Positions 795-64,000 of a stretch of 64,000 bases of DNA are shown one piece after another. Every line of letters begins with the position of its first letter. Position 1 is the stretch's first letter. Both the position numbers and the translations under genes were made by a program. The notes beneath the pieces were generated by a model. That model worked only from the letters and a program-made list of their open reading frames with translations. It made no database searches and was not told where the DNA came from. The DNA comes from a virus, in IMG/VR virus record IMGVR_UViG_3300024359_000006, positions 1 through 64,000 of that record; one strand, written 5' to 3'.

Positions 795-1148
795 ATGAAA
801 GATTATTTTGACAACGAGGATTATGATGATTTGTTTGATGATGAAAACAATAATCGTAGAGGAAGTGAATCATTTAATAGTTTAGATGATTTTAACGAAG
901 CTGATTTTAAAGATTTAATTGAAAAATTAAAAAGGGTTAGAGAAGAACAATTAATTATGGAAAACTATAACAACATTGTAAAACAAGGAGTAGACGTTGA
1001 AGGTATTGCCGAATATGGTGAAGATAATTTAAATAGACTAAAACAGACTCTTGATATTATGATTGAGTTTTTTGAAGATAGAGAAGATTATGAAAAATGC
1101 CATGATGTTAAATTATTTTCAGATCAAATAAAAGAAATTGAATTTTGA
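795..1148 (+). CDS. UVR-like hairpin protein A, 117 aa
   Basis: The first 30 residues are extremely acidic (D/E/N). The C-terminal ~35 residues form a predicted helical hairpin with the pattern L..hI.FFEDRE-DYEKCHDVK. The same pattern ends the proteins at 2773-3036 and 3295-3561, so the three are paralogues in this part. It resembles the UVR motif of UvrB/UvrC (..DYEKAA.LRD.I) with Cys in place of Ala. The UVR link is an inference. The stop overlaps the TTG start of the next gene. Confidence 0.6.
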   Translation: MKDYFDNEDYDDLFDDENNNRRGSESFNSLDDFNEADFKDLIEKLKRVREEQLIMENYNNIVKQGVDVEGIAEYGEDNLNRLKQTLDIMIEFFEDREDYEKCHDVKLFSDQIKEIEF

Positions 1149-1465
1149 AAACAATAAAAACATTTGAAAGTTTTATTTCTGAAAAGAAAAAGAATAACAC
1201 TACTACTAAAATAAAAGCTGTAACTAAAAAACAGAAAAAAGCAGTTAAAAAAGTTAAGAAGTTTTTAAAGAAAGATAAAAAAATAACCAGCGACGTTAAA
1301 GATGGTAAAGCAGATAGTTCTGATAAAATGAGAAGTATGTTATTTAAATTACAGGCTAAGGGCGCGAAGGTTGATGTGCAAAAGACTGATTTAAAAAAGA
1401 AAGAATTAGAAGTTAGATCTAAATTAGATACTATTAGAAAATCTAAAAAGAAAGAAGACGAATGA
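1145..1465 (+). CDS. Lys-rich protein with T4 internal-protein-like N-terminus, 106 aa
   Basis: The start is a TTG that overlaps the previous TGA stop (TTGA). It is preferred because the resulting N-terminus, M-K-T-I-K-T-F-E-S-F-I-S-E, matches the tag found on many proteins at 52-64 kb and the T4 IPI/II/III capsid-targeting peptide (MKTYQEFIAE). The rest is very basic, with about a third Lys, and contains no hydrophobic segment, which fits a DNA-associated internal virion protein. Cleavage after SE (residue 13) would be expected by analogy. Packaging is inferred. Confidence 0.6.
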   Translation: MKTIKTFESFISEKKKNNTTTKIKAVTKKQKKAVKKVKKFLKKDKKITSDVKDGKADSSDKMRSMLFKLQAKGAKVDVQKTDLKKKELEVRSKLDTIRKSKKKEDE

Positions 1466-46690: not shown

Positions 46691-47059
46691 ATGAAAACAT
46701 TTATAGAATATTTAGAAGAAAACAGAGTTACTGAAAAGGAAATGCAACTTTTAACAGAAGGACTTCAACAAGAATGGACTCCTGAACTAGAAGAAAAAGT
46801 AGATAAAGCAGTTGATGAATTTTTAAACGAATACAGAGATAAAAATGGAGACTTAGATGTTGATAGATTTAATAATGAAATGACTAATGAAGGTCTTTTA
46901 GGTTCCATTGTAGGTGGTCTTGCTGGATTTGCTTTAGGAAAATCTATTGGAAAAATGGTAGCTAAAGTATTAGGTGTACAAAAAGGTATTCTATATGATT
47001 TATTAACTTCACGACTCGTTGGAACTGCAATCGGAGCTTCAATCGGTAAAAGGTTTTAA
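46691..47059 (+). CDS. Glycine-zipper protein with capsid tag and protease sites, 122 aa
   Basis: The N-terminus M-K-T-F-I-E-Y-L-E-E resembles the internal-protein tag. Two head-protease-like sites follow, L-T-E|G (23/24) and T-N-E|G (67/68). After the second come two glycine-zipper helices: G75, G79, G83, G87 and then G111, G115, G119, all at GxxxG spacing. Cleavage at 67/68 would release a 55-residue membrane-active peptide. Glycine zippers form helix packs in membranes, so a pore used during DNA entry is possible. Packaging, cleavage and pore formation are inferred. Confidence 0.65.
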   Translation: MKTFIEYLEENRVTEKEMQLLTEGLQQEWTPELEEKVDKAVDEFLNEYRDKNGDLDVDRFNNEMTNEGLLGSIVGGLAGFALGKSIGKMVAKVLGVQKGILYDLLTSRLVGTAIGASIGKRF

Positions 47060-50046: not shown

Positions 50047-50245
50047 TATAGATATGGATGAGGAATTAGACAAGTTTTATAGAGATAAAAACAGGTTTAA
50101 AAATTTAAAGAAAATGTTAGATTTTAAATTTAACAAAGAAGATTTTGAAGGTAAAGGTATTAAGATGAGTCAACCTAAATTTAAAAAGAAATTGACTACA
50201 TCGACGTTTATAAAAAGTAAAAGTAATAAGAAAGGACTATTTTAA
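50039..50245 (+). CDS. Small basic protein, 68 aa
   Basis: Acidic first 12 residues, then strongly basic. It ends in K-S-N-K-K-G-L-F, a C-terminus that could dock to the sliding clamp, as short phage late-transcription factors do, but that is speculation. It overlaps the primase and touches the UvsY gene (TAATG). No family is recognised. Confidence 0.55.
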   Translation: MFDIDMDEELDKFYRDKNRFKNLKKMLDFKFNKEDFEGKGIKMSQPKFKKKLTTSTFIKSKSNKKGLF

Positions 50246-50688: not shown

Positions 50689-50704
50689 AAATTATGTTGA
50701 ATGA

Positions 50705-52204
50705 ATGGAGCTTACTCTCACAGAGAATAAACAATATTTAAGAGTTGATGAAGCATCTGAGCTTGAACTTGAACAACTAAACATATCACTAACTAAAAGA
50801 ATCGACAGCTGGAGATTTAATCCTCTAGTAAAAAAAGGAATATGGGATGGGTACATTTCATATTTTAAAGATAATAAGTGGATTCCGGCAGGTTTATGGA
50901 GATATGTTTATAATGTTTGTAAAGAATATAGATTTGAACTTAATATTAATGGCGTTAAAGAGCTGTTTGATAAGAATGTTACAGCATCTTATTTTGAGAA
51001 GTGGGCTTTGGCCTTCTTTGAAGGTTCAGAGATAACTCCTAGGGACTATCAAATAGAAGCTGCGTATAATATCCTTAAGTTTAGAAAGTGTCTTAGTGAA
51101 CTTGCTACGTCTGCAGGAAAGACATTAATTAGTTTCCTTACAGTTGCTTATTTATTAGAACAAGAAAAGGCAAAGAAGATTTTATTCATTGTACCTAATG
51201 TTTCATTGGTTGTTCAAGCAACTGAAGATTTTTCAGACTATAATTATGCAAATAGGGTTAATATAAAAATTCAACAAATATTTAGTGGTAAAAAGATTAG
51301 AGATGGTAGAAATGTAGTGATAGGTACATATCAATCTCTCGTTAAAAAGAAGCAAGAATATTTTGATCAGTTTGATGCTGTTATAATTGATGAGTGTCAC
51401 AAAATGAAAAGCCAATCTATTAAAACAATCTTACAGAAATGTGTAAACGCAGAATATAGATATGGTCTTTCAGGTACAATTCCTAAAGACGGCACATTAG
51501 ATCGTTTAACATTGATGGCTTATACAGGTCCACTAATCAGTGAGGTGAGTGCTAGTTTCTTACAACAAGAGGGGTATATAGCAAATTGTAAGGTTAAAGT
51601 AATTGAAATGGATTATGCACCTGAAAGTGCTAAGAATGCCTTTACAGAAATGGCTCAAAACAGATATGAAAACAAGGACTTATTTCAATTAGAACAAAAC
51701 TACATAATTAATTCAGAACCAAGATTAAATTTTATATGTAAGGTTATTGGTAAAATACCAAGAAATAGTCTTGTACTTTTTCATAGGATTGAACATGGAA
51801 AAAAGGTTTATGAAAAACTTAGACAAGAAAGTAATAAAGCGGTCTATTATGTAGATGGCGGCACAGACAAGGATATTAGAGAAGAGTATAAGAAAAAGAT
51901 GGAAGCTGGAGATGAGGTTGCAATCGTTGCAAGTTATGGTACATTCTCTACAGGTATATCAATTAAAAAAATTCACAATATCTTTTTTACAGAAAGTTTT
52001 AAGTCTGAGGTTATTATTAGACAATCAATTGGTAGAGGATTAAGACAACATCACTCTAAAAGTAGTGTTCTTATTATAGACTTTGTAGATGATTTGGCCA
52101 CTACAGAATGGAGTAATTATTTAATGAAACACTCTAAAGCAAGACAATCAATATACAAAGAACAACAGTTTGAGTACAGTGTAAAGAAATTTCAATTTGA
52201 GTGA
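50705..52204 (+). CDS. uvsW: UvsW-like superfamily 2 helicase
   Basis: Q-like motif R-D-Y-Q-I-E-A-A (113-120), Walker A S-A-G-K-T (136-140), DECH box (229-232), motif III L-S-G-T, and a second RecA domain with I-G-R-G-L-R-Q-H. The N-terminal ~100 residues match the small UvsW N-domain in size. At 499 aa it equals T4 UvsW (about 500 aa), the RecG-like enzyme that remodels forks and R-loops. It follows uvsY. Confidence 0.92.
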   Translation: MELTLTENKQYLRVDEASELELEQLNISLTKRIDSWRFNPLVKKGIWDGYISYFKDNKWIPAGLWRYVYNVCKEYRFELNINGVKELFDKNVTASYFEKWALAFFEGSEITPRDYQIEAAYNILKFRKCLSELATSAGKTLISFLTVAYLLEQEKAKKILFIVPNVSLVVQATEDFSDYNYANRVNIKIQQIFSGKKIRDGRNVVIGTYQSLVKKKQEYFDQFDAVIIDECHKMKSQSIKTILQKCVNAEYRYGLSGTIPKDGTLDRLTLMAYTGPLISEVSASFLQQEGYIANCKVKVIEMDYAPESAKNAFTEMAQNRYENKDLFQLEQNYIINSEPRLNFICKVIGKIPRNSLVLFHRIEHGKKVYEKLRQESNKAVYYVDGGTDKDIREEYKKKMEAGDEVAIVASYGTFSTGISIKKIHNIFFTESFKSEVIIRQSIGRGLRQHHSKSSVLIIDFVDDLATTEWSNYLMKHSKARQSIYKEQQFEYSVKKFQFE

Positions 52205-52214
52205 TATTTAAGGT

Positions 52215-52224
52215 GATATATAAT
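52215..52224 (+). promoter_or_regulatory. Candidate late promoter GATATATAAT
   Basis: Exact motif, 41 bases before the ATG at 52256. It marks the change from replication genes to the tagged virion-protein array. Confidence 0.6.
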
Positions 52225-52255
52225 TATAATATAGTAATAAAAAAACATAATAAAA

Positions 52256-52990
52256 ATGGAAACACAAATTCAATCATTTGCTACATTTTCTGAAACTAGA
52301 AAAGCAGCAATAGACACTAAGATAAAAGAAGAAGCGTCTACAAAGAGAACAACTGAAGCTCAAAGATTTGCTGACTTATTAGCTGAGTATGAAGTAACCA
52401 CTGTTGCTGAAATAGCTGAAGAACAAAGAACTGAATTTTTTGCTAAATTAGTTGGAGAAACTGATGAGGTAGAAACTGAAGGTAATGCATTTGGAGCAGC
52501 TGTTAAAAAAGCAAAAGAAGAAGATAAAGAAGAATTTAAAGTAGGCGGAGAAACTTACAAAGTAGAAGAATCAACAGTTACCGAAGCTAGAGCTAAATAT
52601 GTAAATACACAAAAAACAGTAGATGGTAATCCATTAATATCTTTTAATAGCTCCACTACTAGAGCTAAATGGATTGATGAAAATAAATCAAATGTTATAT
52701 CTGTACCTGATTCAACGGTTATTAATTCCGATCAAGGTAGAGTAGTAGGTTCTAGTAGAGGTCCTTATTACTTAATCGTAAAGGCAGATGTACTAGAAGA
52801 ATCTAAAGTTGAAGAAGCTGAAGTTAAGTCTGATGAAGATTTTATGGAGATGGCTATGACAATGTATAAAGAAGCATTCGGTGATGATTTTGACGAGGCT
52901 AAAGCTAAAGAAGCTGCTGAAGGAATGTTAAAGAAAGCTGATGGAGACTATGGAGCTGCTGTAGGAATGTTACAATCATCTTTAGGATAA
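52256..52990 (+). CDS. Tagged head/internal protein with C-terminal UBA-like helices, 244 aa
   Basis: The N-terminus M-E-T-Q-I-Q-S-F-A-T-F-S-E-T is a variant of the internal-protein tag. A head-protease-like site S-T-V-T-E|A-R-A lies near residue 117. The N-terminal half is acidic and helical, as in prohead core proteins. The last 50 residues form three short helices (EAAEGMLKKADGDYGAAVGM) like a UBA fold. A late-type promoter precedes it. A scaffold or internal protein is inferred. Confidence 0.6.
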   Translation: METQIQSFATFSETRKAAIDTKIKEEASTKRTTEAQRFADLLAEYEVTTVAEIAEEQRTEFFAKLVGETDEVETEGNAFGAAVKKAKEEDKEEFKVGGETYKVEESTVTEARAKYVNTQKTVDGNPLISFNSSTTRAKWIDENKSNVISVPDSTVINSDQGRVVGSSRGPYYLIVKADVLEESKVEEAEVKSDEDFMEMAMTMYKEAFGDDFDEAKAKEAAEGMLKKADGDYGAAVGMLQSSLG

Positions 52991-53005
52991 AAATAAAATA
53001 TAGAC

Positions 53006-54271
53006 ATGTTATTAACTTACGAACAATTTCTAGTCGAAAAGGCTCAGATAGTAGAGGGTAATTTGATTTTAGAAGGAGGAGCTGCAGGCCACATGCCTCA
53101 TCCCTTTGACTATAATGATTTAACTTTCCAAGATTTTAAAACCATTGTTACAAATTCATTACAAGGTGAAATACATTTTGAAGAAGGACCTACTGAAAAA
53201 ACAGATGGTCAAAACTTCTTTGTTACAGTAAAGGATGGTCAAGTTCTTTTCTCAAGAAACAAAGGGCAACTAATGGCACCTGTATCTTTAGATGGAGTTA
53301 TTAAAATGTTCACGGGCCATGCATCAAAACTAGTAGAAGATACTTTTATCTATGCTGCAACAGATTTAGAAGCTGCATTATTAAGTTTAAGCGATCACCA
53401 AGAATTTAACAATGGACAAAACTTTCTTAATATGGAGTTAATTTATTCTAAGAACCCTAATGTGATTAATTATGACAGAGATGTTATTCAATTTCACGGC
53501 ATGGCAGAAACTGATGGCAAAGGTAATATAGTTAACATGTCACAGCAAACAGGTGCAAAACTTGCAAGACTTCTTAAAGGTATAGAGGCAGATGTACAAA
53601 AGACATTTACAATTATTCCTCCACAAATACTTAAACTTCAGAAAAACATAGATTTTGAAAAGAGACAAAGTTATTATCACAGTAAATTAAATGACTTAAG
53701 AGATGAGTTTAATTTATCAGACGGTGACGAAGTTAAAATGTATCATGAAGCATGGTGGAGAAGAGAAATTGAAAAAGATTTTGCAGATATTTCAAGTGAT
53801 TTAAAAGAAGGTTTATTTTTAAGATGGGCATACAATGACAAGCAAACTATGAATATGGTTGCTATGAAAAAGATTGCTACTCCCGAACAAATGAAAAAAA
53901 TCAAAGAGTTTGATAAGATAAAAGGTAAAAAGTATAAGCAGAATATTTTACCATTTGAAAACTTATTTTTAGAGTTAGGAAAAGATGTATTATTAAATGC
54001 AAGTAATTTTGTTGCTGCAAATCCTGATTTAGAAAAGAAAAACTTACATGCTAAAATTAGAAAGGCAGCAGCTGACGTTAAACTTAACGGTGACTTAAAG
54101 CAAGTTGCTAAAATCGAAGCTGAATTAGAAAGATTAGAAAGTATTGGAGGTATCGAAGGTATTGTACCAACTGAGGGAATAGTCTTTAAATATAAAGGTA
54201 AGATTATGAAACTTACCGGCACATTTGCTGCAATTAATCAGCTTATGGGCATCATAAAATACGGAAGATAA
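53006..54271 (+). CDS. Tagged nucleotidyltransferase (ligase-like) internal protein
   Basis: The first 24 residues carry a tag (LLTYEQFLVE|KA) and further cut-site-like positions (I-V-E|G, I-L-E|G). The body has ordered motifs of covalent nucleotidyltransferases: E-K-T-D-G-Q-N with K65 as adenylylated Lys (motif I), S-R-N-K-G (83-87), M-E-L-I-Y (143-147, motif III) and E-G-I-V-F-K-Y..K-L-T-G at 390-405 (motifs IV-V). DNA/RNA ligases use these residues. A ligase that is packaged and injected would be comparable in idea to the T4 Alt enzyme. The fold call is by motif; the substrate is unknown. Confidence 0.72.
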   Translation: MLLTYEQFLVEKAQIVEGNLILEGGAAGHMPHPFDYNDLTFQDFKTIVTNSLQGEIHFEEGPTEKTDGQNFFVTVKDGQVLFSRNKGQLMAPVSLDGVIKMFTGHASKLVEDTFIYAATDLEAALLSLSDHQEFNNGQNFLNMELIYSKNPNVINYDRDVIQFHGMAETDGKGNIVNMSQQTGAKLARLLKGIEADVQKTFTIIPPQILKLQKNIDFEKRQSYYHSKLNDLRDEFNLSDGDEVKMYHEAWWRREIEKDFADISSDLKEGLFLRWAYNDKQTMNMVAMKKIATPEQMKKIKEFDKIKGKKYKQNILPFENLFLELGKDVLLNASNFVAANPDLEKKNLHAKIRKAAADVKLNGDLKQVAKIEAELERLESIGGIEGIVPTEGIVFKYKGKIMKLTGTFAAINQLMGIIKYGR

Positions 54272-54278
54272 ATATACT

Positions 54279-56237
54279 ATGATAATTAATTATAATCAAT
54301 TTATTTTAGAAAACGAAGATAAGGAATATGAGAAGTTAGATGCGAAAGCAGGTGACATGTCAAAAAAGTTAACCGATAAGGAGAGAGCACGTTATAAAGA
54401 ATTAAGTAAAAAACATTTCCCAATAGTTATTAAAAAATTACCTGGAGATGTTTATGAAATTAAGACAGTAGGTTTAGGATATACAGGCCCACAAGGAGAT
54501 GTGTTAGCAGAATATTATAGAGAAGAAATTTTAGCAAAGGTAAAAAATCCAAAAGGTATTCACATGGATATTAGAAGAAATGATGGAGGACAACAGGCTC
54601 CAGCTAAGGCAATATTGGATTTTTTTGTAGATACACCTAAAGACGAAGATGGAAATAGAAAAATTCCATTAGAACAACAAAGTAATTATTGGCCAACTGA
54701 TGAATGGACAGATGAAGATAGAGAAAGAGGTTATCAATCGAAGACTAATTATTTAGAAAGTAAAATAGAAGATAAGAATAAATTTACAAATATACCTACA
54801 GTGGTTTCCACAAGTGATTGGACATTTTCAGGAGGTGAATTCTTAACTGACACTATAAAAAACTTTGGCAAAGACAACATTACACACGTTGGCTCTAATT
54901 CAGGAGGAGGAGCAAATAGAACGTCACATACTGCCGACGACATGGCATCAACTTGGCCAGATGAAGATCCAAATGCTGAAGGATTATCAGTTGATGAAAA
55001 GTTAGAAAGATCAATGAAAGTATTTGAAAAGTTTTATGTAGATAAAGAAAAAGCCAAAGAATGTAGAGAAGCAGTTATGAAAGATCCTAGTAAATATATT
55101 AAGGATGGAAAAATAAACGATAAAACAGTTCAAGACAAAATGCGTGAAATTACAAAAGATTTTCATGTAGCATATTTTACAAGAGAAGATGGAAAAATTG
55201 AAGTAGCGACGCCTTATGGAAAATCTGATAGGATAGTAACTGATAAAGATGGTAAGCCATTTGGACCTCCTTATGAATTTAAAGGAAATTGGGAAGGAAC
55301 AGGAACAGGAAATGCAGTACCAGGAATAGGAATTACAGAAACAGATCCAGATACTGCTAAAAACAGCGCATTAGAATTACTATATACAAAGACTGGTCAG
55401 AAAGATCAGCTTGAAAAAATGAAATCAAATCCAAAAGAATTTGGTCTTACTAAAGACGGCAAAGATGATTGGTATAAAAGAGGTACACTTGCAGATAGAG
55501 AAGCAGGTAGAGAACATAATTACCCAGGATATGCAGCTGAAGGAAAACACCCTGAAATGTGGAAAGCTAGCCAAAAGGCAGCAAGTAAAAATATGAAAAA
55601 CTGGAAAAGCATTCTTAAAAAAGCAGAGTCTAATAAAAATATAGATGATAAATCTAAACCAGAGCCTGAAAATTGGTGGGAAGAATACAGTGATGAAGCA
55701 AAGGCCAAATATATTAAAAAACACGGAGAGGCTCCAGACGTCGGTAATAAAGTAAAACCAACTAATGAAAATAAAAGAAATATTATGAAAAAGGTTAAAC
55801 TATTTGAAGAATTCTTAAATGAATCAACAATGAATAATTTTAAACCCGAGGTATTGTCTAATAGAGATAAAGTAGATATGAAGCTTTTTAAAAGTTTAAT
55901 GCCTAGAACTGCTAAAACGGTTAAAGACGCTGATCGTAGAATTCAAACATGGAAGGGTAATAAAATGTTTGTACATTATCAAGCATTTACAGTTCAACCA
56001 AATGGTAATAAACCAGATTTACCAACATATAAGTTCCATAATTCACAATATTGGTTAAACGATACTCAATTAGGTTGGGCAGGTAGAGCAGGTGAAAAGG
56101 TAAACATCACTTTATTAACAATAACTGATGTAACTGATCCTGATAATGAAAAAATGTTAGGAGAACTTTATGTTAATACCGATACATATTTACAAGAACA
56201 CAATATAGTATTTAACGAGTTAAAGAAAATATCATAA
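54279..56237 (+). CDS. Tagged S41 protease-like protein fused to a second tagged domain
   Basis: The tag is M-I-I-N-Y-N-Q-F-I-L-E. Residues 94-104 (I-H-M-D-I-R-R-N-D-G-G) and 181-188 (W-T-F-S-G-G-E-F, S184 as nucleophile) match the S41 C-terminal-processing-protease core. The usual Lys about 25 residues later is not evident (G-S-N-S-G-G-G-A-N), so activity is uncertain. Residues 330-500 are Lys/Glu-rich. A second tag, M-K-K-V-K-L-F-E-E-F-L-N-E-S, begins at residue 503, with an ATG at 55785. The gene may make a polyprotein or a second product from the internal start. Confidence 0.68.
   Translation: MIINYNQFILENEDKEYEKLDAKAGDMSKKLTDKERARYKELSKKHFPIVIKKLPGDVYEIKTVGLGYTGPQGDVLAEYYREEILAKVKNPKGIHMDIRRNDGGQQAPAKAILDFFVDTPKDEDGNRKIPLEQQSNYWPTDEWTDEDRERGYQSKTNYLESKIEDKNKFTNIPTVVSTSDWTFSGGEFLTDTIKNFGKDNITHVGSNSGGGANRTSHTADDMASTWPDEDPNAEGLSVDEKLERSMKVFEKFYVDKEKAKECREAVMKDPSKYIKDGKINDKTVQDKMREITKDFHVAYFTREDGKIEVATPYGKSDRIVTDKDGKPFGPPYEFKGNWEGTGTGNAVPGIGITETDPDTAKNSALELLYTKTGQKDQLEKMKSNPKEFGLTKDGKDDWYKRGTLADREAGREHNYPGYAAEGKHPEMWKASQKAASKNMKNWKSILKKAESNKNIDDKSKPEPENWWEEYSDEAKAKYIKKHGEAPDVGNKVKPTNENKRNIMKKVKLFEEFLNESTMNNFKPEVLSNRDKVDMKLFKSLMPRTAKTVKDADRRIQTWKGNKMFVHYQAFTVQPNGNKPDLPTYKFHNSQYWLNDTQLGWAGRAGEKVNITLLTITDVTDPDNEKMLGELYVNTDTYLQEHNIVFNELKKIS
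55785..56237 (+). other. Internal tagged segment, 150 codons, possible separate start
   Basis: In-frame ATG followed by a full tag of the same form as at 62993 and 63323. The domain downstream (S-L-M-P-R-T-A-K..F-V-H-Y-Q-A-F-T-V) is compact and unlike the protease part. It is either a fused gene or an overlapping start. Confidence 0.5.
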
Positions 56238-56248
56238 AATTATAAGAA

Positions 56249-58087
56249 ATGGCATTACAGGATTTAAGAACATATTATGAGTCAGTTGAAAAAGAGGATT
56301 TTAATAATCTCTTAGCACAGAAATGTTTAGTTACTGAAAAGATTCAAGCAAGTAGTCTTCATGTAAGAAGAGAAGATAGACTCTTAGAATTTTATAAATC
56401 AGGTAATAAGCAGGCTCTTAATAAAATAGATAGAACAATTGTTTCTTACTATGAAAAAGGTATAGGCCATTTTAAAGCATTATTAGACGAGACTATTCAA
56501 CAGATGCCAAGTGATTGGAAATTTGGATTTGATTATATGGTTAGTGAAAAGACAGTAGACATTGAATATGATACACTTCCAAAAAATAGTCTTATATTAA
56601 CACATATTCAAGTATTAAATGAAGACAGAACCCAGATTAAAAAAGTAATTAGAGATCCTAAGATTTTAGAAAAATGGGCTAATCTTTTAGAAGTTCAATC
56701 GCCTGAGGTTGTTTATGAAGGCATCCTTTCAGATCACCAAAAGGAAAAGTTAGTTAATATACTGAGCTTACAAGGAGAGCAAGCAAAAATAGAATTACAA
56801 GATTTTGGTTTTTCTTATAGAGCATTTACAACATTTAACGAGTCAATTCATAAGTCAATGTTAAACAATGATATTCATAAAGACATTGATGGATTAGTTG
56901 TAAGTTTTGTAGAGGGCAAATCATTAAAGAACTTTAAACTACAGAGTCCATTAAAAGAAATTAAAGAACAAGAAGAAAGAAAGAGTTCGGATGCGTATCA
57001 AATTACCGTAGTAAAACTTATTGAATATTTTAATGCGTTTGATTTTAGTGAAATACAACTTGAAAGTAAAGAAGTTGATGAGAGATATTTAGAATTAATG
57101 ACAGCAGGTTTTAATTCATTTATAAAAGATAATGGAGCAAGCTTTATTGGCATGAATTTTGATAGCGCAGAGTTTGCAAACAATGAAGCATTTGATTTAA
57201 ATCCAAAAATGATAACAAATCAAGAAACTATTAGGCTTGTTAATGAATCAAGAGAAGTCGCAGAATTATTAAAAATAACATTAGGTACTTTTAGAAAGAA
57301 GAGACAGAAAGAAAATGGAGTTTTAGCAGGAGATGCATTTAATAGTTTAAACGGTATTATAGAAAAGATTGAAGCAAGAATTTACGAAAAAGTAGAGGAA
57401 GATAGTGTAATGGATTTTAAAACATTTAAAATTAACGATACACTTAAGGGACAAACAAATCCAATTAACGAAGGTTTAAAAGTAAACCATCCTGAAAGAG
57501 GAGCTAAAGAAGTTAATATGTTTGTTGGTAGGTTTCAGCCATTCACATTAGGACATGTTAAAGTCGTTGAACATTTGCATAAACAAAATGGACTTCCAAC
57601 TGTTATATTTTTAGTTAAAGCTAAAAAGAAAAAGAAAGAAGACAGTTTTAAAAGACCATTTGATGAAACAATGCAGGTAAATATGATAAAACAGGTGATG
57701 AAGGAATATCCTATTGAGACAGTGTATGTTATAGATACCGCAGCAATTGACAAAATGTTTAATGCTATGAGACCTAAGTATGAACCTGTATTATGGGGAA
57801 CAGGTAGTGATAGAATGAAAACATATGGCTATCAAGTTAATAACCCAAAATATAGAGGAGAATTAGGAGTTGAAGATAGCTTCAGATTAGAAGAAATTCC
57901 AAGGACAGACGATAACATTAGTGCAACAAAGGTAAGAAACGCTTTATTAGATGGAGACGAAAAGACATATAAGTCCATGACTCCAAAATCTATGCACAAA
58001 ATGTATAAATTATTAAAACAAACAATGGAAGAAAGTGTTGAACTACAAGAACAAGTTTTAACATTTTCAGAATTTAAAAGCAAATAA
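56249..58087 (+). CDS. Ligase-like domain fused to an NMN/pantetheine-type adenylyltransferase
   Basis: Residues 28-40 (V-T-E-K-I-Q-A-S-S-L, K31) with I-D-G-L-V-V-S-F (213-220) and K-N-F-K-L-Q-S-P (227-234) look like motifs I, IV and V of RNA/DNA ligases. Residues 424-590 form a Rossmann nucleotidyltransferase: G-R-F-Q-P-F-T-L-G-H (427-436) and I-S-A-T-K-V-R-N-A-L (557-566), the [HT]xGH and ISxTxxR motifs of NMNAT/NadR/CoaD enzymes. A head-protease-like site, N-P-I-N-E|G-L, stands between the halves (408/409). The C-terminus is tag-like (L-T-F-S-E-F). Together they suggest nucleotide-cofactor or nucleic-acid repair, perhaps NAD salvage. Both fold calls are by motif. Confidence 0.72.
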   Translation: MALQDLRTYYESVEKEDFNNLLAQKCLVTEKIQASSLHVRREDRLLEFYKSGNKQALNKIDRTIVSYYEKGIGHFKALLDETIQQMPSDWKFGFDYMVSEKTVDIEYDTLPKNSLILTHIQVLNEDRTQIKKVIRDPKILEKWANLLEVQSPEVVYEGILSDHQKEKLVNILSLQGEQAKIELQDFGFSYRAFTTFNESIHKSMLNNDIHKDIDGLVVSFVEGKSLKNFKLQSPLKEIKEQEERKSSDAYQITVVKLIEYFNAFDFSEIQLESKEVDERYLELMTAGFNSFIKDNGASFIGMNFDSAEFANNEAFDLNPKMITNQETIRLVNESREVAELLKITLGTFRKKRQKENGVLAGDAFNSLNGIIEKIEARIYEKVEEDSVMDFKTFKINDTLKGQTNPINEGLKVNHPERGAKEVNMFVGRFQPFTLGHVKVVEHLHKQNGLPTVIFLVKAKKKKKEDSFKRPFDETMQVNMIKQVMKEYPIETVYVIDTAAIDKMFNAMRPKYEPVLWGTGSDRMKTYGYQVNNPKYRGELGVEDSFRLEEIPRTDDNISATKVRNALLDGDEKTYKSMTPKSMHKMYKLLKQTMEESVELQEQVLTFSEFKSK

Positions 58088-58088
58088 G

Positions 58089-59099
58089 ATGAGTATAAGA
58101 ACAGATTTTCAAATATTATTAAATAAAGCTATTAAAAGAGAAGATCTTTTAGTAGAAGGAAATATAGGTAAGTATCAATCACTAGGAAGTTTAAATAATT
58201 TAAAGGCAAAGCAACAAATGTTTGACCTTATTAACAAAGATTATTTTAAAGGAAAATCTCCTTTTTCAAAGAGATTAACTTTAACAGAAATAGATGATTC
58301 TACAATGCAAGAAGTTTTTACATTAATGAGTGAAGATATTGATGCAGCAAATACAATATTTAATTTAAAAAGAACAGGTATTGGTTCAGGTGAAATATTA
58401 ATGGCATACCTTGTTGAAAACTTAGTAATAGGAGGAGGTAGTGCAGATGTAGACTTAAACTTATTCGATCCAAAGTCGGGTAAATTTTTAAGTGCTGGAA
58501 TAGCAGAATTAAAAGAGGTTACAAGAACAAATGATGGTTTTTTAAAAGGTTGGAGAACAGGCGCAAGGCACGCTGCAATTAGAGCACAGGCTATTGCGGA
58601 TATTAGAAATTTATATTTAGCAGTTAGGGATTCTATTACTGAATTAGACCCTACTACAAAGGCTGGTCAAGCTGCAGCAATAAGTGCAGCAAAAGGAGAA
58701 TATTCAGCACTACTTAAATATTTTGAAGACCTAGATGCAATACCAGCAGCAGCTGATAGAGATTTTAAACTTAAACAAGGTACAAAAGGTGAAATAATCG
58801 TAAAGTTTCAAGGGAATGTAATAGGTAATATTGGTGACGCAAAAACAATTTCAGAAATTAATAAGATTTTAAGTCAAGATGTTAATACGAATGTAAAAAC
58901 TTATAGGCAAATCGAAGAAGAAGTGGCAAAAGGGTTTGGAGATATAGATGAAAAGTTTGTATTTATTAGAACTACAGGAAAATCTGAAAAGAAAAAGATA
59001 CAAGGTATTTATTATAAGGAAAAATTACCTGATAATGCTAAAGAATTAAAAATATCAGAAGTCACTCAAAATACGATTAAAGTTAAAGTAAAAATTTGA
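58089..59099 (+). CDS. Candidate PD-(D/E)xK nuclease, possible internal protein
   Basis: Starts one base after the previous stop. A possible cut site L-L-V-E|G-N lies at 23/24. Residues 98-142 contain G-S-G-E (E102), A-D-V-D (D122) and I-A-E-L-K (E140-K142), the helix-Glu, Asp and ExK layout of PD-(D/E)xK nucleases. Ala-rich helices (residues 160-215) and a beta-rich end follow. The nuclease fold is inferred from spacing of three acidic residues and one Lys. It lies inside the tagged array, so packaging is likely if the site is used. Confidence 0.5.
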   Translation: MSIRTDFQILLNKAIKREDLLVEGNIGKYQSLGSLNNLKAKQQMFDLINKDYFKGKSPFSKRLTLTEIDDSTMQEVFTLMSEDIDAANTIFNLKRTGIGSGEILMAYLVENLVIGGGSADVDLNLFDPKSGKFLSAGIAELKEVTRTNDGFLKGWRTGARHAAIRAQAIADIRNLYLAVRDSITELDPTTKAGQAAAISAAKGEYSALLKYFEDLDAIPAAADRDFKLKQGTKGEIIVKFQGNVIGNIGDAKTISEINKILSQDVNTNVKTYRQIEEEVAKGFGDIDEKFVFIRTTGKSEKKKIQGIYYKEKLPDNAKELKISEVTQNTIKVKVKI

Positions 59100-59107
59100 T
59101 ATATAAT
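59098..59107 (+). promoter_or_regulatory. Candidate late promoter GATATATAAT
   Basis: Exact motif that overlaps the stop codon of the previous gene, 37 bases before the ATG at 59135. Confidence 0.6.
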
Positions 59108-59134
59108 AGATAGGACAAAAAATAAAGAAAAAAA

Positions 59135-61588
59135 ATGGCAACATTCGAAGAATTTTTAAACGAAAGAAATATAACTCTTAAAAGAAGATATACTGAATCA
59201 CACCCTTCCCAAACTGTAGGCAATTCAGCTAGAGTTAGAAATGCAATTATCGAAGCATTAAAGGATGGCAAAATAACAGTTGAAGAATTTAATAATATAG
59301 TTAGTCAACACTCTTCTGCTCCATCAAAATGGACAAGAGGTAATAAAAGATTTTTCAAAATAGAAGAAGATGGCGTAAGTCTTTCTAAATATGGAACAAA
59401 AATATTAAATAGCTTAGTTACTGAATCTATAGATGAAGGTTTAAATAAGTCAGATGTTACATATCAATTAGCAATAGATTATACAGGTAGAACTAAGCCG
59501 AAAATTACTAAACTTAATAAGAAAAGACTTGAAATTAAGTACGGTTATAAAATTAGCCCAGAAACGGTAATTGATTCTATCAAGAAGGTTCATCCAGAAG
59601 TAGAACTTAAACATGTTGAATGGTCAGATAAAATGTCAGGTGGAGGTTTTCACATATTTGATATTTTAGAATCTGCAGTTACTGAAGGAACATATGACTC
59701 AAAAGATCATATAGGATCTACATCAGATGGACAAGGTTCTAATGCTGAGATTTATAAAAAAGGTAGAGGATATTATGTAGTTGTTAGTGGAGAGTATGAT
59801 TATGACTTCGAGGCTAAGAATGACAAAGAACTAATAAATAAGTTAGAAGAATATGAATTTGATTCTTCTGATATTTTAGAATCAGCGATTAATAATATAG
59901 AAGAAAATATGATACATAATAATTTTAATGAATTCATTAATAAATCAATTAATGAAAATAACGTACAGGATTTAGATATGGAAGATATGAATCCTAAAAT
60001 GGCTAAGCAGCTATTAAACATGGCTAGTAAACAATATAAAAACGAATTTCAAGGATCTTATACTGTAGATAAAGGAAATAAAAAAATGAGGTTTGATACT
60101 TATAGTGCTTTATTAGCTATGGTAAAGCAAAAAGATTCTGGACCTTATGGTCCTTCATATGGTATTAATATTGGAGGAAATAATGAATTAGAAGATTTTG
60201 AAGGTAATGTTTTAGGTAAGCTAAATGATAAATCATTATCAAGTGCAATTAGTAGTGTTGCAGCTGCTATGAAAATGGCAGCTAAAAACAGTAATGAATC
60301 AGTAGTTACTGAAGCCAGAGTAAGTGCAAAAAAGTTATTAAAATCAGTTGTAAATGGAGAAAGTAACTCAGTTGAAGGTATTAAACTTTCTAAAGAAATG
60401 GCCCAATCATTTTTAGAGTGGCTAGATCAATCAAGTTATGGTAGAAAATTTAGCGATCTTCCATTTGATAAATTATTTAGTGCAGCATTTAATTGGGGTA
60501 TTGAAAGATATGCTAAAGACAATAAACTGAAAAATGAATTAAAAGATTTAAAAACAAAGGCAAAAACAATGAAAGAATCAAAAATATACGAAAGTTTCAG
60601 TGAATTTGTTAATGAATCTTTAGAACTTAATGAAGCATTAAAGAGTTCTAAACTTAGAGGACTTCTTACTATGAAAAGAGGTAGTAAGGCAATTTTAAAA
60701 GCAATTTATGGCTTTAGTAAAATAGAATTAGACAAAATAACAGATGATCAAATAATAGATATTGATCCTAAATTAGGTAAAAAAGCAGAAGGTTTAGTTG
60801 TTTATTATACAACTCAAGAAAAAGACAACCCTTATGCTGATACTTCAAAATCTACATATAATTCTGCTGGTAAAATTCCAGCAAATACAATACTTGCATT
60901 AGGTATGGGAAAAGACGTTGCATATGTTAAAAGAGATTATATTAAGAGAAAAATGACAATGTCTTTAACTACAGATCCTAGAAAATCATCTTATGATATT
61001 GGAATTAATAAAGAGTATAGAGGCTGGGACGCATCCGGTATTTATAATGTAAAAAGAGTAATTGATGTTGCAGACGCTGCATTTGTAATTAATACTAACG
61101 CTCTTCCAAATACTAAAGGAAAAATTGAAGACAGAGTAAAAGCTAAAGAAGGTGCATTAGCATTTAAATCTGATAAGGAATTTAAAGATGCAAACATAGC
61201 AAGATATAGAGAAATTCTACAAAAGAGAGCAAGTGAATTACCAATAGATAAATTAGTAGAAGATGCAATTGATGATGCAACTAAGGTTATGAAAGATGGT
61301 TTAAAAAATCAAGAAAAAAATAAGTACGGAGAACTTATTGCAGGTGTAGGAAAGGACGGTAGAGCTTATAAATTAAATGACATTAGTAATTTTATAAATG
61401 GTTTAATTTCAGACTATGAAAGATGGTCAGGTTATATGGCAACAATTGAAGAGGCTGAAGCTAAATATGGTAAAGATTCTAGAGAATTTGAATGGGAAGC
61501 TAGATATTCTCAAAAAGAATCTGAGGAATACGCAAAGAGAATTAAAGATAAATTAGCTAAACTTAAGAAAAGAAACTTAGCTTGGTAA
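59135..61588 (+). CDS. Multi-tag polyprotein of internal proteins, 817 aa
   Basis: The start M-A-T-F-E-E-F-L-N-E is a tag. Two more tags appear inside: M-I-H-N-N-F-N-E-F-I-N-K at 259 and K-I-Y-E-S-F-S-E-F-V-N-E at 483-494. Head-protease-like sites stand between compact segments: V-T-E|S (97), I-D-E|G (101), V-T-E|G (184), V-T-E|A (393), V-N-E|S (494) and L-N-E|A (500). The segments (1-97, 102-184, 185-258, 259-393, 394-478, 501-817) have no recognised domains. The plan looks like several internal proteins fused in one frame and cut apart in the prohead. Cleavage is inferred. Confidence 0.7.
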   Translation: MATFEEFLNERNITLKRRYTESHPSQTVGNSARVRNAIIEALKDGKITVEEFNNIVSQHSSAPSKWTRGNKRFFKIEEDGVSLSKYGTKILNSLVTESIDEGLNKSDVTYQLAIDYTGRTKPKITKLNKKRLEIKYGYKISPETVIDSIKKVHPEVELKHVEWSDKMSGGGFHIFDILESAVTEGTYDSKDHIGSTSDGQGSNAEIYKKGRGYYVVVSGEYDYDFEAKNDKELINKLEEYEFDSSDILESAINNIEENMIHNNFNEFINKSINENNVQDLDMEDMNPKMAKQLLNMASKQYKNEFQGSYTVDKGNKKMRFDTYSALLAMVKQKDSGPYGPSYGINIGGNNELEDFEGNVLGKLNDKSLSSAISSVAAAMKMAAKNSNESVVTEARVSAKKLLKSVVNGESNSVEGIKLSKEMAQSFLEWLDQSSYGRKFSDLPFDKLFSAAFNWGIERYAKDNKLKNELKDLKTKAKTMKESKIYESFSEFVNESLELNEALKSSKLRGLLTMKRGSKAILKAIYGFSKIELDKITDDQIIDIDPKLGKKAEGLVVYYTTQEKDNPYADTSKSTYNSAGKIPANTILALGMGKDVAYVKRDYIKRKMTMSLTTDPRKSSYDIGINKEYRGWDASGIYNVKRVIDVADAAFVINTNALPNTKGKIEDRVKAKEGALAFKSDKEFKDANIARYREILQKRASELPIDKLVEDAIDDATKVMKDGLKNQEKNKYGELIAGVGKDGRAYKLNDISNFINGLISDYERWSGYMATIEEAEAKYGKDSREFEWEARYSQKESEEYAKRIKDKLAKLKKRNLAW

Positions 61589-62094
61589 TGAACGAAAACG
61601 TTACACCAGCAAATATTGGAGGTATGGGAAATCCTGCCTTTCCACAAGGTGGAGAAGTAGGAAGTGGAGATGTGCCAGCTGGTAAAGGAGATGCTAAGAA
61701 AGAGCAAAAGAAAAAGAAGAAAGAAAGAGAAGAATATCTTAAAAATAGAAAAGAAGAAATGGTACATACTACATTTAGTGGATTTATAAATGAAGCTAAA
61801 ATTAAAGATGCTAGAAAAGATTTAGGCTATATTGCATTTCTTGAAGAAATGGCAGAAATTAATAATAGAGACATTCAAAACGCATATGATGTTGCACTAA
61901 AAGTTTTACAAGATAAAGGTATGAGTGAAAAGGAAGCAATTGGATTTTTAAACTCACCACATGGAAAGTATATGGCAGAATATTTAATTCCAGGTCAAGA
62001 TTATAGTCATGAAGCATTCTTAGACAAATTAGATGAATACTATAACGAAAGAATGTTGAAACAATATGCAAAGGATTTTAAAAACCTAGCATAA
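61588..62094 (+). CDS. Head-associated protein with internal tag, 168 aa
   Basis: Start at the ATG overlapping the previous stop (TAATG). Residues 1-40 are Gly/Pro-rich and disordered (N-I-G-G-M-G-N-P-A-F-P-Q, G-S-G-D-V-P), then Lys/Glu-rich. At residue 58 a tag begins, M-V-H-T-T-F-S-G-F-I-N-E|A. The C-terminal 100 residues are helical. Prohead scaffold proteins often have such a plan, and the tag may mark a mature C-terminal domain. It ends the late-type run before a terminator. Confidence 0.6.
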   Translation: MNENVTPANIGGMGNPAFPQGGEVGSGDVPAGKGDAKKEQKKKKKEREEYLKNRKEEMVHTTFSGFINEAKIKDARKDLGYIAFLEEMAEINNRDIQNAYDVALKVLQDKGMSEKEAIGFLNSPHGKYMAEYLIPGQDYSHEAFLDKLDEYYNERMLKQYAKDFKNLA

Positions 62095-62116
62095 GAATAA
62101 GTTAGTATTTATAATT

Positions 62117-62150
62117 AAAACCCAAGTTCTCGCAGATCTTGGGTTTTTTT
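62117..62150 (+). terminator. Rho-independent terminator
   Basis: AAAACCCAAG and CTTGGGTTTT pair perfectly, with an 11-base loop, followed by a T run. It ends the 59135-62094 unit. Just before it, TTAGTATTTATAATTAAAAC (from 62102) is a near-copy of the end of the three-copy upstream element. Confidence 0.9.
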
Positions 62151-62239
62151 GTTAATAACTTTAGTAAAAAAGTTGCCTCAAAATTTTCACGGGTCAAAGA
62201 TTATAGTTATATTAGTATTATAATTAAAACTTAAACTAG
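62151..62239 (+). promoter_or_regulatory. Three-copy upstream element, copy 3
   Basis: Directly after a terminator. GTTAATAACTTTAG, then TTTTCACGGGTC, then AAAGATTATAGT and the common AAAACTTAAA end, leading into the ATG at 62240. Its spacing differs from the other copies by one base between the first two blocks. Confidence 0.65.
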
Positions 62240-62515
62240 ATGAGCTATACAAATTTTAACAGACATGAATCAATGAATTCAGAAACTAGAAAAGAAATCA
62301 TGAACTTAATTAATGATTTAATAAATTACGATGAACAAATAGATAAAAAATTAAGAAGATCTATTGAAAACAAATTATATGGTTTATTTGATGGTTATTT
62401 ATATGATAAACTTCAATTGAATGCATTAGAATGTCCAAGTGATTTAGCAAGTAGAATTATGAAAATATATCATAAATGTGCAATGTACCCAAAGTCAAAA
62501 ACAATTATATTTTAA
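62240..62515 (+). CDS. Hypothetical helical protein, 91 aa
   Basis: Driven by upstream-element copy 3. Residues 15-55 form charged helices, and the C-terminus has two Cys. No family is recognised. Like the genes after copies 1 and 2 it is a small accessory gene, so the element may control host-takeover functions. Confidence 0.6.
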   Translation: MSYTNFNRHESMNSETRKEIMNLINDLINYDEQIDKKLRRSIENKLYGLFDGYLYDKLQLNALECPSDLASRIMKIYHKCAMYPKSKTIIF

Positions 62516-62518
62516 TCT

Positions 62519-62528
62519 GATATATAAT
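62519..62528 (+). promoter_or_regulatory. Candidate late promoter GATATATAAT
   Basis: Exact motif 35 bases before the tagged gene at 62554. Confidence 0.6.
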
Positions 62529-62553
62529 ATAATATTAAAAATAAAATAACAAG

Positions 62554-62976
62554 ATGAACAATATTAAGAATTTTAACGACTTTATTAATGAGTCTCAAGA
62601 AATAAACGAAGGTACTCGTTCTCAATTTGGAAAAATTGATAAAAAAGGAAATATAACTTCAGTTTATATGCATTATGATGGTTATCCAGAAAACGTATTA
62701 CCTATTTTAAGAAAAGGTTATAAAGGTGGAAAAAATGTAGATTATGTACTTTCACAAGGAAGTGGTTCAGGTCTTGAAGTAAATCCTAAGAAAATTAACT
62801 TTTATAAAGATGATAGAGATTCTCAATCAACTGGTAATGTTGCAACAATTGCAAATTATTTATCAGATGTAGAAGATGATGGTGGAGCAGAATACGTTTA
62901 TTTATGGGATGAAAGATCAAAGCAATGGATGATGGCATCTTATGGTGAAAGAGACTTAAAGGTTGCAGAAGTTTAA
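62554..62976 (+). CDS. Tagged protein with a DGYP-type domain, 140 aa
   Basis: The tag M-N-N-I-K-N-F-N-D-F-I-N-E-S is followed by a cut site, E-I-N-E|G (19/20). The domain begins with V-Y-M-H-Y-D-G-Y-P-E-N-V (residues 37-48) and contains G-S-G-S-G-L-E and Y-V-Y-L-W-D-E. I associate the H-x-D-G-Y-P-x-x-V pattern with a widespread small phage and plasmid family of unknown function. Here that family appears to have gained a capsid tag and is probably injected. Family assignment is by memory of the pattern only. Confidence 0.6.
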   Translation: MNNIKNFNDFINESQEINEGTRSQFGKIDKKGNITSVYMHYDGYPENVLPILRKGYKGGKNVDYVLSQGSGSGLEVNPKKINFYKDDRDSQSTGNVATIANYLSDVEDDGGAEYVYLWDERSKQWMMASYGERDLKVAEV

Positions 62977-62992
62977 AAAAATTAAAGTAACA

Positions 62993-63304
62993 ATGAAAAA
63001 CGTAAAATTATTCGAAGAATTTATAAACGAAGATATTGACTCAAATAAAATATTTGAATTAACTGAACTAGAAAAAAAAATTAATGGCTTTACAGGCCAA
63101 GCACAGGTAAAAGCTAAAGTTGGAGTAACGACATTTTCTGTTTCAAAATACATGATAGTGTTTGATTATGACGAAGCTAATAAAGATTTACCATTTGTAT
63201 TTAGACCAGATATGAAATCTGCAAAAGTAGCAAAGGATAAATTAGAAAAAACTGACATGTTTACTCCTGAAATGAACTTAAGAATTGAAGAAATTAAATA
63301 TTAA
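62993..63304 (+). CDS. Tagged internal protein, 103 aa
   Basis: Start at 62993, chosen because the tag M-K-N-V-K-L-F-E-E-F-I-N-E then lies at the N-terminus; an in-frame ATG at 62963 would bury it. Cleavage after residue 13 would leave a 90-residue alpha/beta domain (KYMIVFDYDEANKDLPFVF). No family is recognised. Confidence 0.65.
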   Translation: MKNVKLFEEFINEDIDSNKIFELTELEKKINGFTGQAQVKAKVGVTTFSVSKYMIVFDYDEANKDLPFVFRPDMKSAKVAKDKLEKTDMFTPEMNLRIEEIKY

Positions 63305-63322
63305 AATTAAAAAAACAAAGTT

Positions 63323-63778
63323 ATGAAAAATATAAAATTATTCGAAGAGTTTATCAATGAAAACGATATGATGGCTACAACGCCAGCAGAACTTAAAAAA
63401 ATGGCTAAAAAATTTAAACAAATCCATTATGACATGGCCTCCGGTGATTTTGAAGAGGAAGATATAGATGCAAACTTTAAATTTATAACAGACTTTCTTG
63501 GAACAGACCAAATAGTTGAAATAGTTGGAGGAGACCATTGGGCTAATCATTCTTCTGGAAAAGAATTAACAGACATTTATAATGATTTAATCACTAAGAT
63601 TAAAAACAAGAAAGACCATGAATTAGATTCAGGAGCAGACTATGTTACAGGTACATTAAATGGAGCAAAGGTAGTTTGTCAATACGATGGTTACAGTACC
63701 CCTACTCATTTATCAATTATGATAAACGTTAATGACATTAAAAAGTTTGACATTAAAACAACACCTTTTGTAGTTTAA
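63323..63778 (+). CDS. Tagged internal protein, 151 aa
   Basis: Tag M-K-N-I-K-L-F-E-E-F-I-N-E, almost identical to the previous gene, showing recent duplication of the tag. The mature part is helical then beta (GADYVTGTLNGAKVVCQYDG) with no recognised fold. It is the last of the array and is followed by a terminator. Confidence 0.65.
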   Translation: MKNIKLFEEFINENDMMATTPAELKKMAKKFKQIHYDMASGDFEEEDIDANFKFITDFLGTDQIVEIVGGDHWANHSSGKELTDIYNDLITKIKNKKDHELDSGADYVTGTLNGAKVVCQYDGYSTPTHLSIMINVNDIKKFDIKTTPFVV

Positions 63779-63823
63779 TATTAGGAAGGTATCATTAAAA
63801 AGTTAATAACTAATTAGTAATTT

Positions 63824-63855
63824 AAAGGAGATTGTATGAAACAATCTCCTTTTTT
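63824..63855 (+). terminator. Rho-independent terminator
   Basis: AAAGGAGATTGT and ACAATCTCCTTT pair perfectly around ATGAA, with a T run after it. It closes the tagged array. A GTTAATAACTAA sequence at 63802 upstream resembles only the first block of the three-copy element. Confidence 0.92.
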
Positions 63856-63880
63856 AGTATATAAGTTTTAAAATAACTAT

Positions 63881-64000
63881 ATGAAAAGTATACTAGAAGA
63901 AGCAGATCAAATTATCAATCACAGAAGCGAAGAAAAAGAAAGACAATATGGCCCTTTCAGCGAGGGTATGGATAGAGCAGCATCTATTTTCAATGGCATG
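63881..64000 (+). CDS. DUF6378-like protein, 5' end only
   Basis: Forty codons before the window edge: M-K-S-I-L-E-E-A-D-Q-I, then E-R-Q-Y-G-P-F-S-E-G-M-D-R-A. The L-E-E-A and R-x-x-x-Y-G-x-F blocks match the start of a small phage protein family annotated DUF6378, of unknown function and common in dsDNA phages. The gene follows a strong terminator, so it starts a new unit. Confidence 0.6.
   Translation, partial: MKSILEEADQIINHRSEEKERQYGPFSEGMDRAASIFNGM

What the first reader, a model, noticed from the sequence alone, without database searches (positions are those of the whole stretch)
52256..63778. Array of virion effector candidates carrying T4-like capsid-targeting tags
Starts at 52256, 53006, 54279, 59135, 62554, 62993 and 63323, and outside the array 1145 and 46691, share an N-terminal peptide with aromatic-x-[ED]-F-[IL]-x-E. 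It closely resembles the T4 IPI/II/III capsid-targeting sequence (MKTYQEFIAE), which directs proteins into the prohead and is cut off by the gp21 protease. Here the tag precedes many unrelated domains, several enzyme-like. This suggests a modular packaging code that loads an injected effector set much larger than that of T4.
Basis: partly seen in the sequence, partly recalled or inferred. Interest (0 to 1): 0.95.

Follow-up and report, generated by a model that had tools for sequence, protein, structure and literature searches.

The report
Phage address-tagged effector cargo cassettes
A group of mostly uncultured marine relatives of phage T4 seems to put the same short 'pack me into the head' label on many unrelated proteins, more than T4 does, and to swap the cargo behind the label, so one virus particle may deliver a large, changeable toolkit into a bacterium.

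Summary
The tag is real. Eight of nine listed starts carry [FY]xx[FY][ILV]xE close behind the start codon; 52256 does not. A further copy starts at 61759, two lie beyond the window in the same 88-kb record, and copies sit inside long ORFs. By uniform calling 9 of 95 ORFs in the record are tagged, against 0.2 in shuffles; related records, several of them fragments, have 4-24, one with thirteen tagged genes in one array. The record encodes a gp21-type prohead protease fused to a scaffold-like domain that repeats the motif, and a tagged gene at T4's gp67/68 position. Cargo is diverse: 127 tagged proteins, 68 clusters. Between close relatives DNA homology breaks at the tag's end (5 of 14 tags; 3 of 183 control ORFs): cargo is swapped, inserted, deleted, or chained in frame into multi-tag ORFs. 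Relatives' cargo includes NUDIX, GNAT, zeta-kinase and Acb1-like domains. Best reading: a T4-type capsid-targeting leader, removed by the prohead protease, expanded into a cassette system. Packaging, cleavage and injection are inferred, not shown. New variant of a known kind.

The parts
1145..1465 (+). Tagged ORF (TTG start), MKTIKTFESFISE, lysine-rich cargo
46691..47059 (+). Tagged ORF MKTFIEYLEE, glycine-rich C-terminal part; tagged orthologs in five related records
53006..54271 (+). Tagged ORF MLLTYEQFLVE; nucleotidyltransferase/RNA-ligase-like (invariant EKTDGQN)
   Evidence: fold match not significant
54279..56237 (+). Two-module ORF: tag MIINYNQFILE, S41-peptidase-like (below Pfam cut-off), then internal tag MKKVKLFEEFLNE at 55785-55823 and a second module
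54286..55779 (+). Segment absent from two close relatives, in which the second module is a separate tagged gene
59135..61588 (+). Mosaic multi-tag ORF: tag MATFEEFLNE, internal tag FSEFVNE at 60596, degenerate one (FNEFINK) near 59924
61759..62094 (+). Tagged product MVHTTFSGFINE from an ATG inside ORF 61582-62094 (start inferred); homology break at tag end
62554..62976 (+). Tagged ORF MNNIKNFNDFINE (PHROG 1987, unknown function); about 0.47 kb is inserted at the tag end in relative L235
62993..63304 (+). Tagged ORF MKNVKLFEEFINE; absent from L237 with the junction at the tag
63323..63778 (+). Tagged ORF MKNIKLFEEFINE; whole cargo replaced behind the same tag in L235

Best explanation
The peptide is a T4-type capsid-targeting leader. 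Shown by sequence: many unrelated genes begin with a leader of the kind M(K)xxK[LT][FY]xx[FY][ILV]xE; the same record carries a gp21-family protease fused to a scaffold-like domain that repeats the motif; between close relatives DNA homology often breaks at the end of the leader, so the leader stays while cargo changes. Inferred: during head assembly the leader docks the protein on the scaffold core, perhaps because it imitates a scaffold repeat; the protease then cuts after the leader's Glu, as gp21 does in T4; the freed cargo stays in the head and is ejected with the DNA. ORFs with internal leaders would be cut into several cargo proteins, or be started separately at the internal ATG. The short leader-coding DNA also acts as a recombination seam, so that cargo is gained, lost, swapped and chained.
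For: N-terminal excess over shuffles; 0 of 29 motif matches on the non-coding strand. 127 tagged proteins in 68 cargo clusters. Protease family: PHROG 207 E 1.9e-38, T4 gp21 5jbl E 1.6e-4 with the His and Ser kept. Eight tag-like heptads in the scaffold-like part. Tagged ORF right after the portal, the gp67/68 place, in 57 of 73 loci. Tag kept in 35 of 37 orthologs of 53006. Synonymous codons vary among tags. Breakpoints at tag ends: 5 of 14 tags, 3 of 183 controls, with four detailed cases and a cassette joined in frame. GATATATA, a late-promoter-like motif, upstream of 19 of 52 tagged and 93 of 829 untagged genes. T4 IPII/IPIII carry the same leader and T4 internal proteins are packaged and injected (passages). 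In PAU 4 of 5 genes labelled internal capsid protein carry that phage's own leader.
Against: No virion proteomics, cleavage or injection data. The motif was fixed after seeing the finding. Counts in G003 (6), G009 (4), MA9V-2 (5) and T4 (4) are close to, or within, shuffle maxima (3, 2, 3, 5). 16 of 73 loci have no strictly tagged ORF after the portal. The major capsid protein shares only the last residues of the tag (LINE-A). PAU gp70 and the two 'internal capsid vertex' proteins lack the PAU leader. Breakpoints come from five relatives and some are shared, so not independent. The scaffold-mimic idea was not tested.
Confidence: 0.8

Rival explanations
1. The motif is only a prohead-protease recognition site: the proteins reach the head, or are destroyed, by other means, and the leader is a processing site or degradation mark, not an address.
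For: The same motif recurs in the protease-scaffold protein itself, and the Glu end resembles the T4 gp23 site (that gp23 is cut there is recalled).
Against: A cut site alone need not sit 3-8 residues from the start with a constant basic and hydrophobic text before it; in T4 the homologous leader targets proteins to the head (passages; PMC7411985).
Confidence: 0.09
2. The peptide targets proteins to another place used late in infection (membrane, tail, baseplate hub or another compartment) rather than the prohead interior.
For: The window array lies between tail and replication genes, not beside the capsid genes, and 46691 sits at the end of the tail module.
Against: T4 IPII/IPIII share the motif and T4 internal proteins are head proteins; the motif recurs in the protease-scaffold protein and right after the portal.
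Confidence: 0.06
3. The shared text is a DNA-level effect: a recombination seam or a translation-start context spread by gene conversion, without protein function.
For: Homology breaks at tag ends; some tags are close in DNA (pairwise up to 0.87 identical).
Against: Synonymous codons are near genome background and third positions only 48-56% identical between tags of one genome; orthologs at 54-70% protein identity keep the motif; the motif occurs inside ORFs and in the scaffold-like domain.
Confidence: 0.03

Closest known systems
T4 / T-even internal proteins IPI, IPII, IPIII (and Alt) with a capsid targeting sequence cut by gp21
   Same: Short N-terminal leader of the same text (IPII, IPIII: MKTYQEFIAE) on unrelated proteins, and a gp21-family protease. 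In T-even phages the leader is the conserved part of a diverse set (passages of PMC3012670 and PMC12373910).
   Different: Up to 24 tagged genes in one record where T4 has three IPs; a thirteen-gene array; internal leaders in multi-module ORFs; enzyme domains among relatives' cargo. Packaging and injection are not shown here.
Sphingomonas phage PAU genes labelled internal capsid protein
   Same: A leader shared by many genes (MKTxxxLYE, 13 of 296 ORFs by the narrow pattern), including 4 of 5 genes so labelled and the gene labelled scaffolding.
   Different: Other leader text; the basis of the labels is unknown to me.
Phage P1 Dar proteins (DarB capsid targeting sequence)
   Same: Anti-restriction cargo carried in the head; the first 30 residues of DarB suffice to package a reporter (passages of PMC9024508).
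   Different: Its authors found no consensus among the N-termini of the Dar proteins.
Ejection proteins of SPN3US / phiKZ-type giant phages
   Same: Head proteins with N-terminal propeptides removed by a prohead protease (passages of PMC7411985, PMC10052503, PMC5694885).
   Different: Cut after AXE; propeptides mostly 111-254 residues, only two short ones (20 and 24) reported.

Membership tests
T4-type CTS-bearing internal proteins | Short N-terminal leader of common text on unrelated proteins | tested here: met
   127 tagged proteins, 68 clusters
T4-type CTS-bearing internal proteins | gp21-family prohead protease in the same genome | tested here: met
   (record 85641-87539)
T4-type CTS-bearing internal proteins | Leader removed after its Glu in the prohead | not testable with these tools
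   needs mass spectrometry of virions
T4-type CTS-bearing internal proteins | Protein present in the head and injected | not testable with these tools
   no data for these phages; PAU labels only
T4-type CTS-bearing internal proteins | Cargo homologous to T4 IPI/II/III | tested here: inconclusive
   PHROG scan of ten window proteins, seven of them tagged, gave no family so named; no direct comparison with T4 IPs was run
gp21 prohead protease family | Homology and catalytic His and Ser | tested here: met
   the 5jbl chain has Ala where native gp21 has that His and Ser
Acb1 anti-CBASS phosphodiesterases (relatives' cargo) | Pfam Acb1 cut-off of 27 bits and two HxT motifs | tested here: met
   G016 198662: 28.3 bits, HCT and HMT seen; G006 96068 reaches only 22.9; activity untested
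RNA/DNA ligase-type nucleotidyltransferases (53006) | KxDG motif and ligase fold | tested here: inconclusive
   EKTDGQN invariant in 19 aligned proteins; top PDB fold matches are RNA ligases but E 0.37 or worse, model pLDDT 71; no Pfam ligase hit

The most novel reading that the evidence does not exclude
The tag is the constant part of a protein-cargo cassette system. One short leader is at once the prohead address (imitating a scaffold repeat), the protease cut site and, in its DNA, the seam at which cargo is captured, swapped, deleted or joined in frame. Chained cassettes make polyproteins that the prohead protease cuts inside the head into several effectors. One virion could thus deliver about two dozen different proteins, among them counter-defence enzymes such as Acb1-like phosphodiesterases, and each lineage keeps its own tag dialect.
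Probability: 0.45. Interest if true: 0.92.

Novelty: new variant of a known kind. Interest (0 to 1): 0.8.

Why it matters
Few T4 internal proteins had an identified target until recently (passages of PMC12373910). Here an N-terminal pattern plus a gp21-type protease flags dozens of unknown, exchangeable genes as likely first-response effectors in phages about which almost nothing is known. It gives a search rule for counter-defence genes (relatives' hits include Acb1-like, NUDIX, GNAT and zeta-kinase domains), candidate tags for loading proteins into phage heads, and a testable idea of how phages exchange injected cargo.

Tried and rejected
Megablast of 50000-64000 against phages found nothing. 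Pfam, PHROG and NCBIfam gave no function for most window cargo; S41 for 54279 and C25 for 63323 are below the Pfam cut-offs; 1145 and 46691 were scanned with PHROGs only (no hit). PDB sequence searches with 54279, 53006, the 53006 profile and the G006 2H protein gave nothing usable. The single-sequence model of 54279 is unusable, mean pLDDT 38. The PDB fold search with 53006 is suggestive only. TATAAATA (T4's late promoter, recalled) is not significantly enriched upstream of tagged genes (3 of 52; 20 of 829 untagged; p 0.15), GATATATA is. 52256 was rejected as a member. A matrix scan against internal methionines is not used as main evidence: the matrix was trained on the same tags. That orthologs adopt a local tag dialect could not be separated from ancestry. 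Literature searches that showed me no description of such an expanded leader set in this group: (open-licence library only; listings, with passages read from eight papers, none read whole).
Full report
WHERE IT IS. The window is bases 1-64000 of an 88,349-base virus record (G000). The rest of the record holds a T4-type head module: head closure, DNA end protector and portal by PHROGs, a small tagged ORF, then a 632-aa protease-scaffold fusion (PHROG 207, E 1.9e-38); in the closest relative the major capsid gene follows. Portal relatives in IMG/VR include a 205-kb record with an identical portal protein (G001). Among annotated phages the best-ranked portal matches are uncultured huge phages, Sphingomonas phage PAU, Prevotella Lak phages, and Tenacibaculum and Chryseobacterium phages, so a Bacteroidota host is likely (inference).

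CHECK OF THE OBSERVATION. In six-frame stop-free segments of the record there are 29 matches, all on the coding strand. A uniform caller with shuffled controls gives tagged ORFs of all ORFs of 50 aa or more: G000 9 of 95 (shuffle mean 0.20, maximum 2), G001 13 of 260, G002 14 of 208, G003 6 of 213, G005 7 of 137, G006 10 of 133, G007 7 of 158, G008 9 of 102, G009 4 of 114, G016 24 of 344 (mean 0.65, maximum 5), LR756500 (100-460 kb) 19 of 503 (mean 1.14, maximum 5), MA9V-2 5 of 269; T4 4 of 267 (IPII, IPIII, gene 61.1 and one more that is perhaps chance), phage phi14:2 (first 50 kb) 0 of 67, lambda 0 of 77, PAU 0 of 296 by this motif. The low counts (G003, G009, MA9V-2, T4) are close to or within the shuffle maxima (3, 2, 3, 5) and should not be leaned on. 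G000, G001, G007 and G008 are close relatives, so counts are not independent; several records are fragments. The caller misses 1145 (overlapped by a longer antisense ORF) and 61759 (a start far inside its ORF); with these the record has 11.

THE TAG. In 75 tagged genes from eight IMG/VR records the last place is Glu by definition; the fourth is F in 66 and Y in 9, the fifth I 34, L 29, V 12, the sixth N in 46; before it the usual text is M-K-x-[IV]-K-[LT]. T4 IPII and IPIII read MKTYQEFIAE, and T4 gp23 reads FGSFLTE-AE near residue 65 (that gp23 is cut there is recalled). In three genomes tags of one genome share on average 60-63% of bases and 48-56% of third positions, and codon choice at Glu, Phe and Asn is near genome background, so the peptide rather than the DNA text is conserved. 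In the 53006 family 35 of 37 orthologs examined keep the strict tag (4 of 41 loci, all at least 98% identical to the query, were left out); one miss reads LKDFISE, the other has no start in view.

THE MACHINE THAT WOULD READ IT. The protease domain matches T4 gp21 (5jbl, E 1.6e-4) and keeps the His of GELxHP and the Ser of SSR; the 5jbl chain has Ala where native gp21 has them. The scaffold-like half carries eight tag-like heptads (YTKYLAE, YVKYVAE, YSEYLAE, YAEHIAE, YTEHIAE, YSNYIAE, YVNYLKD, YANYIAE), mostly 14 residues apart; the strict motif recurs in the same protein of the seven relatives listed. The ORF right after the portal, where T4 has gp67 and gp68, is strictly tagged in 57 of 73 loci with 700 bases or more behind the portal (7 of 80 loci dropped). 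The major capsid protein from an inner ATG begins MANLINEAEI, sharing only the last residues of the tag. I infer that the aromatic part serves docking on the scaffold and [ILV]-x-E serves cutting.

CARGO. With tags removed, 127 tagged proteins fall into 68 clusters (48 singletons), and the 24 of G016 into 24. G016 has thirteen tagged genes between 193196 and 200292, with two ORFs among them that lack the strict tag; one of these (198294) has a near-tag, MKHVTNFDDFANE. Of 30 tagged proteins of relatives scanned with Pfam, 8 pass a curated cut-off: NUDIX, GNAT, 2'-5' RNA ligase/2H (twice, one also Acb1 at 28.3 bits against 27), ATP-grasp R2K (twice), zeta-toxin/AAA kinase, and a DUF2201 metallopeptidase. 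None of the seven tagged window proteins scanned passes: 54279 is S41-like just below the cut-off (22.6 against 24). 53006 has an invariant EKTDGQN and a late EGxVF text, read as ligase-type nucleotidyltransferase motifs (recalled); RNA ligases lead a PDB fold list without significant hits, and the best predicted viral matches (E 1.8e-26, 1.2e-22) are named for cytidyltransferase-like domains. The untagged neighbour 56249 has a cytidylyltransferase/NMNAT-like domain.

CASSETTE BEHAVIOUR. Against relative L235 the 63323 gene keeps its upstream DNA and its tag (homology to 63363; tag ends 63361), then homology is lost until 63798, past the stop: the cargo is replaced. In the gene of the 61759 product L235 has about 0.25 kb more, with the break at 61787-61795 (tag ends 61794), and in 62554 about 0.47 kb more, with the break at 62585-62594 (tag ends 62592). 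L237 lacks the 62993 gene, and one L237 stretch aligns to both neighbouring window tags, as expected from tag-to-tag recombination. Over five relatives and 134 alignment ends, 5 of 14 N-terminal tags of G001 have an end within 15 nt of the tag's last base, against 3 of 183 untagged ORFs at the same offset (Fisher p 4e-5) and a mean of 0.63 (maximum 4) in 2000 shifted sets. Two of the five are seen in both G007 and G008, so these are probably not independent; internal tags were not in the test. ORF 54279 shows two cassettes joined: two relatives about 95% identical in the preceding DNA lack 54286-55779 and have the second module, with its own tag, as a separate gene. The 59135 family has common ends and a variable middle, 521-1170 aa, with internal tags such as MKESKIYxxFSxFVNES at module borders in the closer relatives; the G003, G005 and G006 copies show only the N-terminal tag. 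Whether internal tags are cut, or are internal starts, is open.

EXPRESSION. GATATATA is strongly biased to the coding strand (43 to 5, 32 to 1, 29 to 0, 21 to 0, 24 to 0 in five records). It lies upstream of the protease-scaffold gene among others, and upstream of 19 of 52 tagged against 93 of 829 untagged genes, although the untagged were counted generously. I read it as this group's late promoter (inference).

INDEPENDENT HINT. PAU has its own leader, MKTxxxLYE, on 13 of 296 ORFs by the narrow pattern (shuffle mean 0.06, maximum 2; 0 in 63,486 inner positions). I read the whole PAU annotation. Five genes are labelled 'internal capsid protein'; four carry the leader (wider pattern), as do 16 of 290 other CDS (p 7e-5). 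gp70 does not, nor do gp1 and gp10, labelled 'internal capsid vertex protein'. The basis of these labels is unknown to me and could include the motif itself.

WHAT IS KNOWN AND WHAT IS NEW. In T-even phages a conserved leader on unrelated internal proteins, their packaging and injection, and their action against GmrSD restriction are described (passages of PMC3012670, PMC9391042 and PMC12373910). PMC12373910 speaks of at least 10 internal proteins among T-even relatives and three in T4. What I did not find, in the open-licence library, is the size of the set in one genome, the array, the multi-tag ORFs, the enzyme domains and the breakpoints at tag ends in this group. The paper on T-even polymorphism cited there (Repoila 1994) is not held and may describe similar exchange in T-even phages. 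I file it as a new variant of a known kind.

Noticed in passing
window 8063-8686, 1462-1746, 52256-52990: Neighbouring genes with weak or no tag (SFEEFSTRG, TYNVFEHQG, none); the G001 copies of 8063 and 52256 have GATATATA upstream.
   Followed up: partly
window 56249-58087: Untagged ORF with a ligase-motif-like N-terminal text (TEKIQASS) and a C-terminal NMNAT/cytidylyltransferase domain; in Microcystis phage Mel-JY01 a 53006-like domain lies in a gene annotated cytidylyltransferase-like, which suggests a functional link between 53006 and 56249.
   Followed up: partly
L265 13196-20000 and on (G016 193196-200292): Thirteen tagged genes in one array in a 256-kb record, with zeta-kinase-like, acetyltransferase-like and Acb1-like members.
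   Followed up: partly
T4 gene 61.1 (L136 18966-19130): The 54-aa T4 gp61.1 begins MKTFKEFIKE, which looks like a capsid targeting leader.
   Followed up: no
window and G001-G006: GATATATA, strongly strand-biased and upstream of late-type genes, is probably this group's late promoter.
   Followed up: partly
JQ362498 (phage PAU): A separate leader dialect, MKTxxxLYE, on many genes, clustered around the portal and capsid genes.
   Followed up: partly
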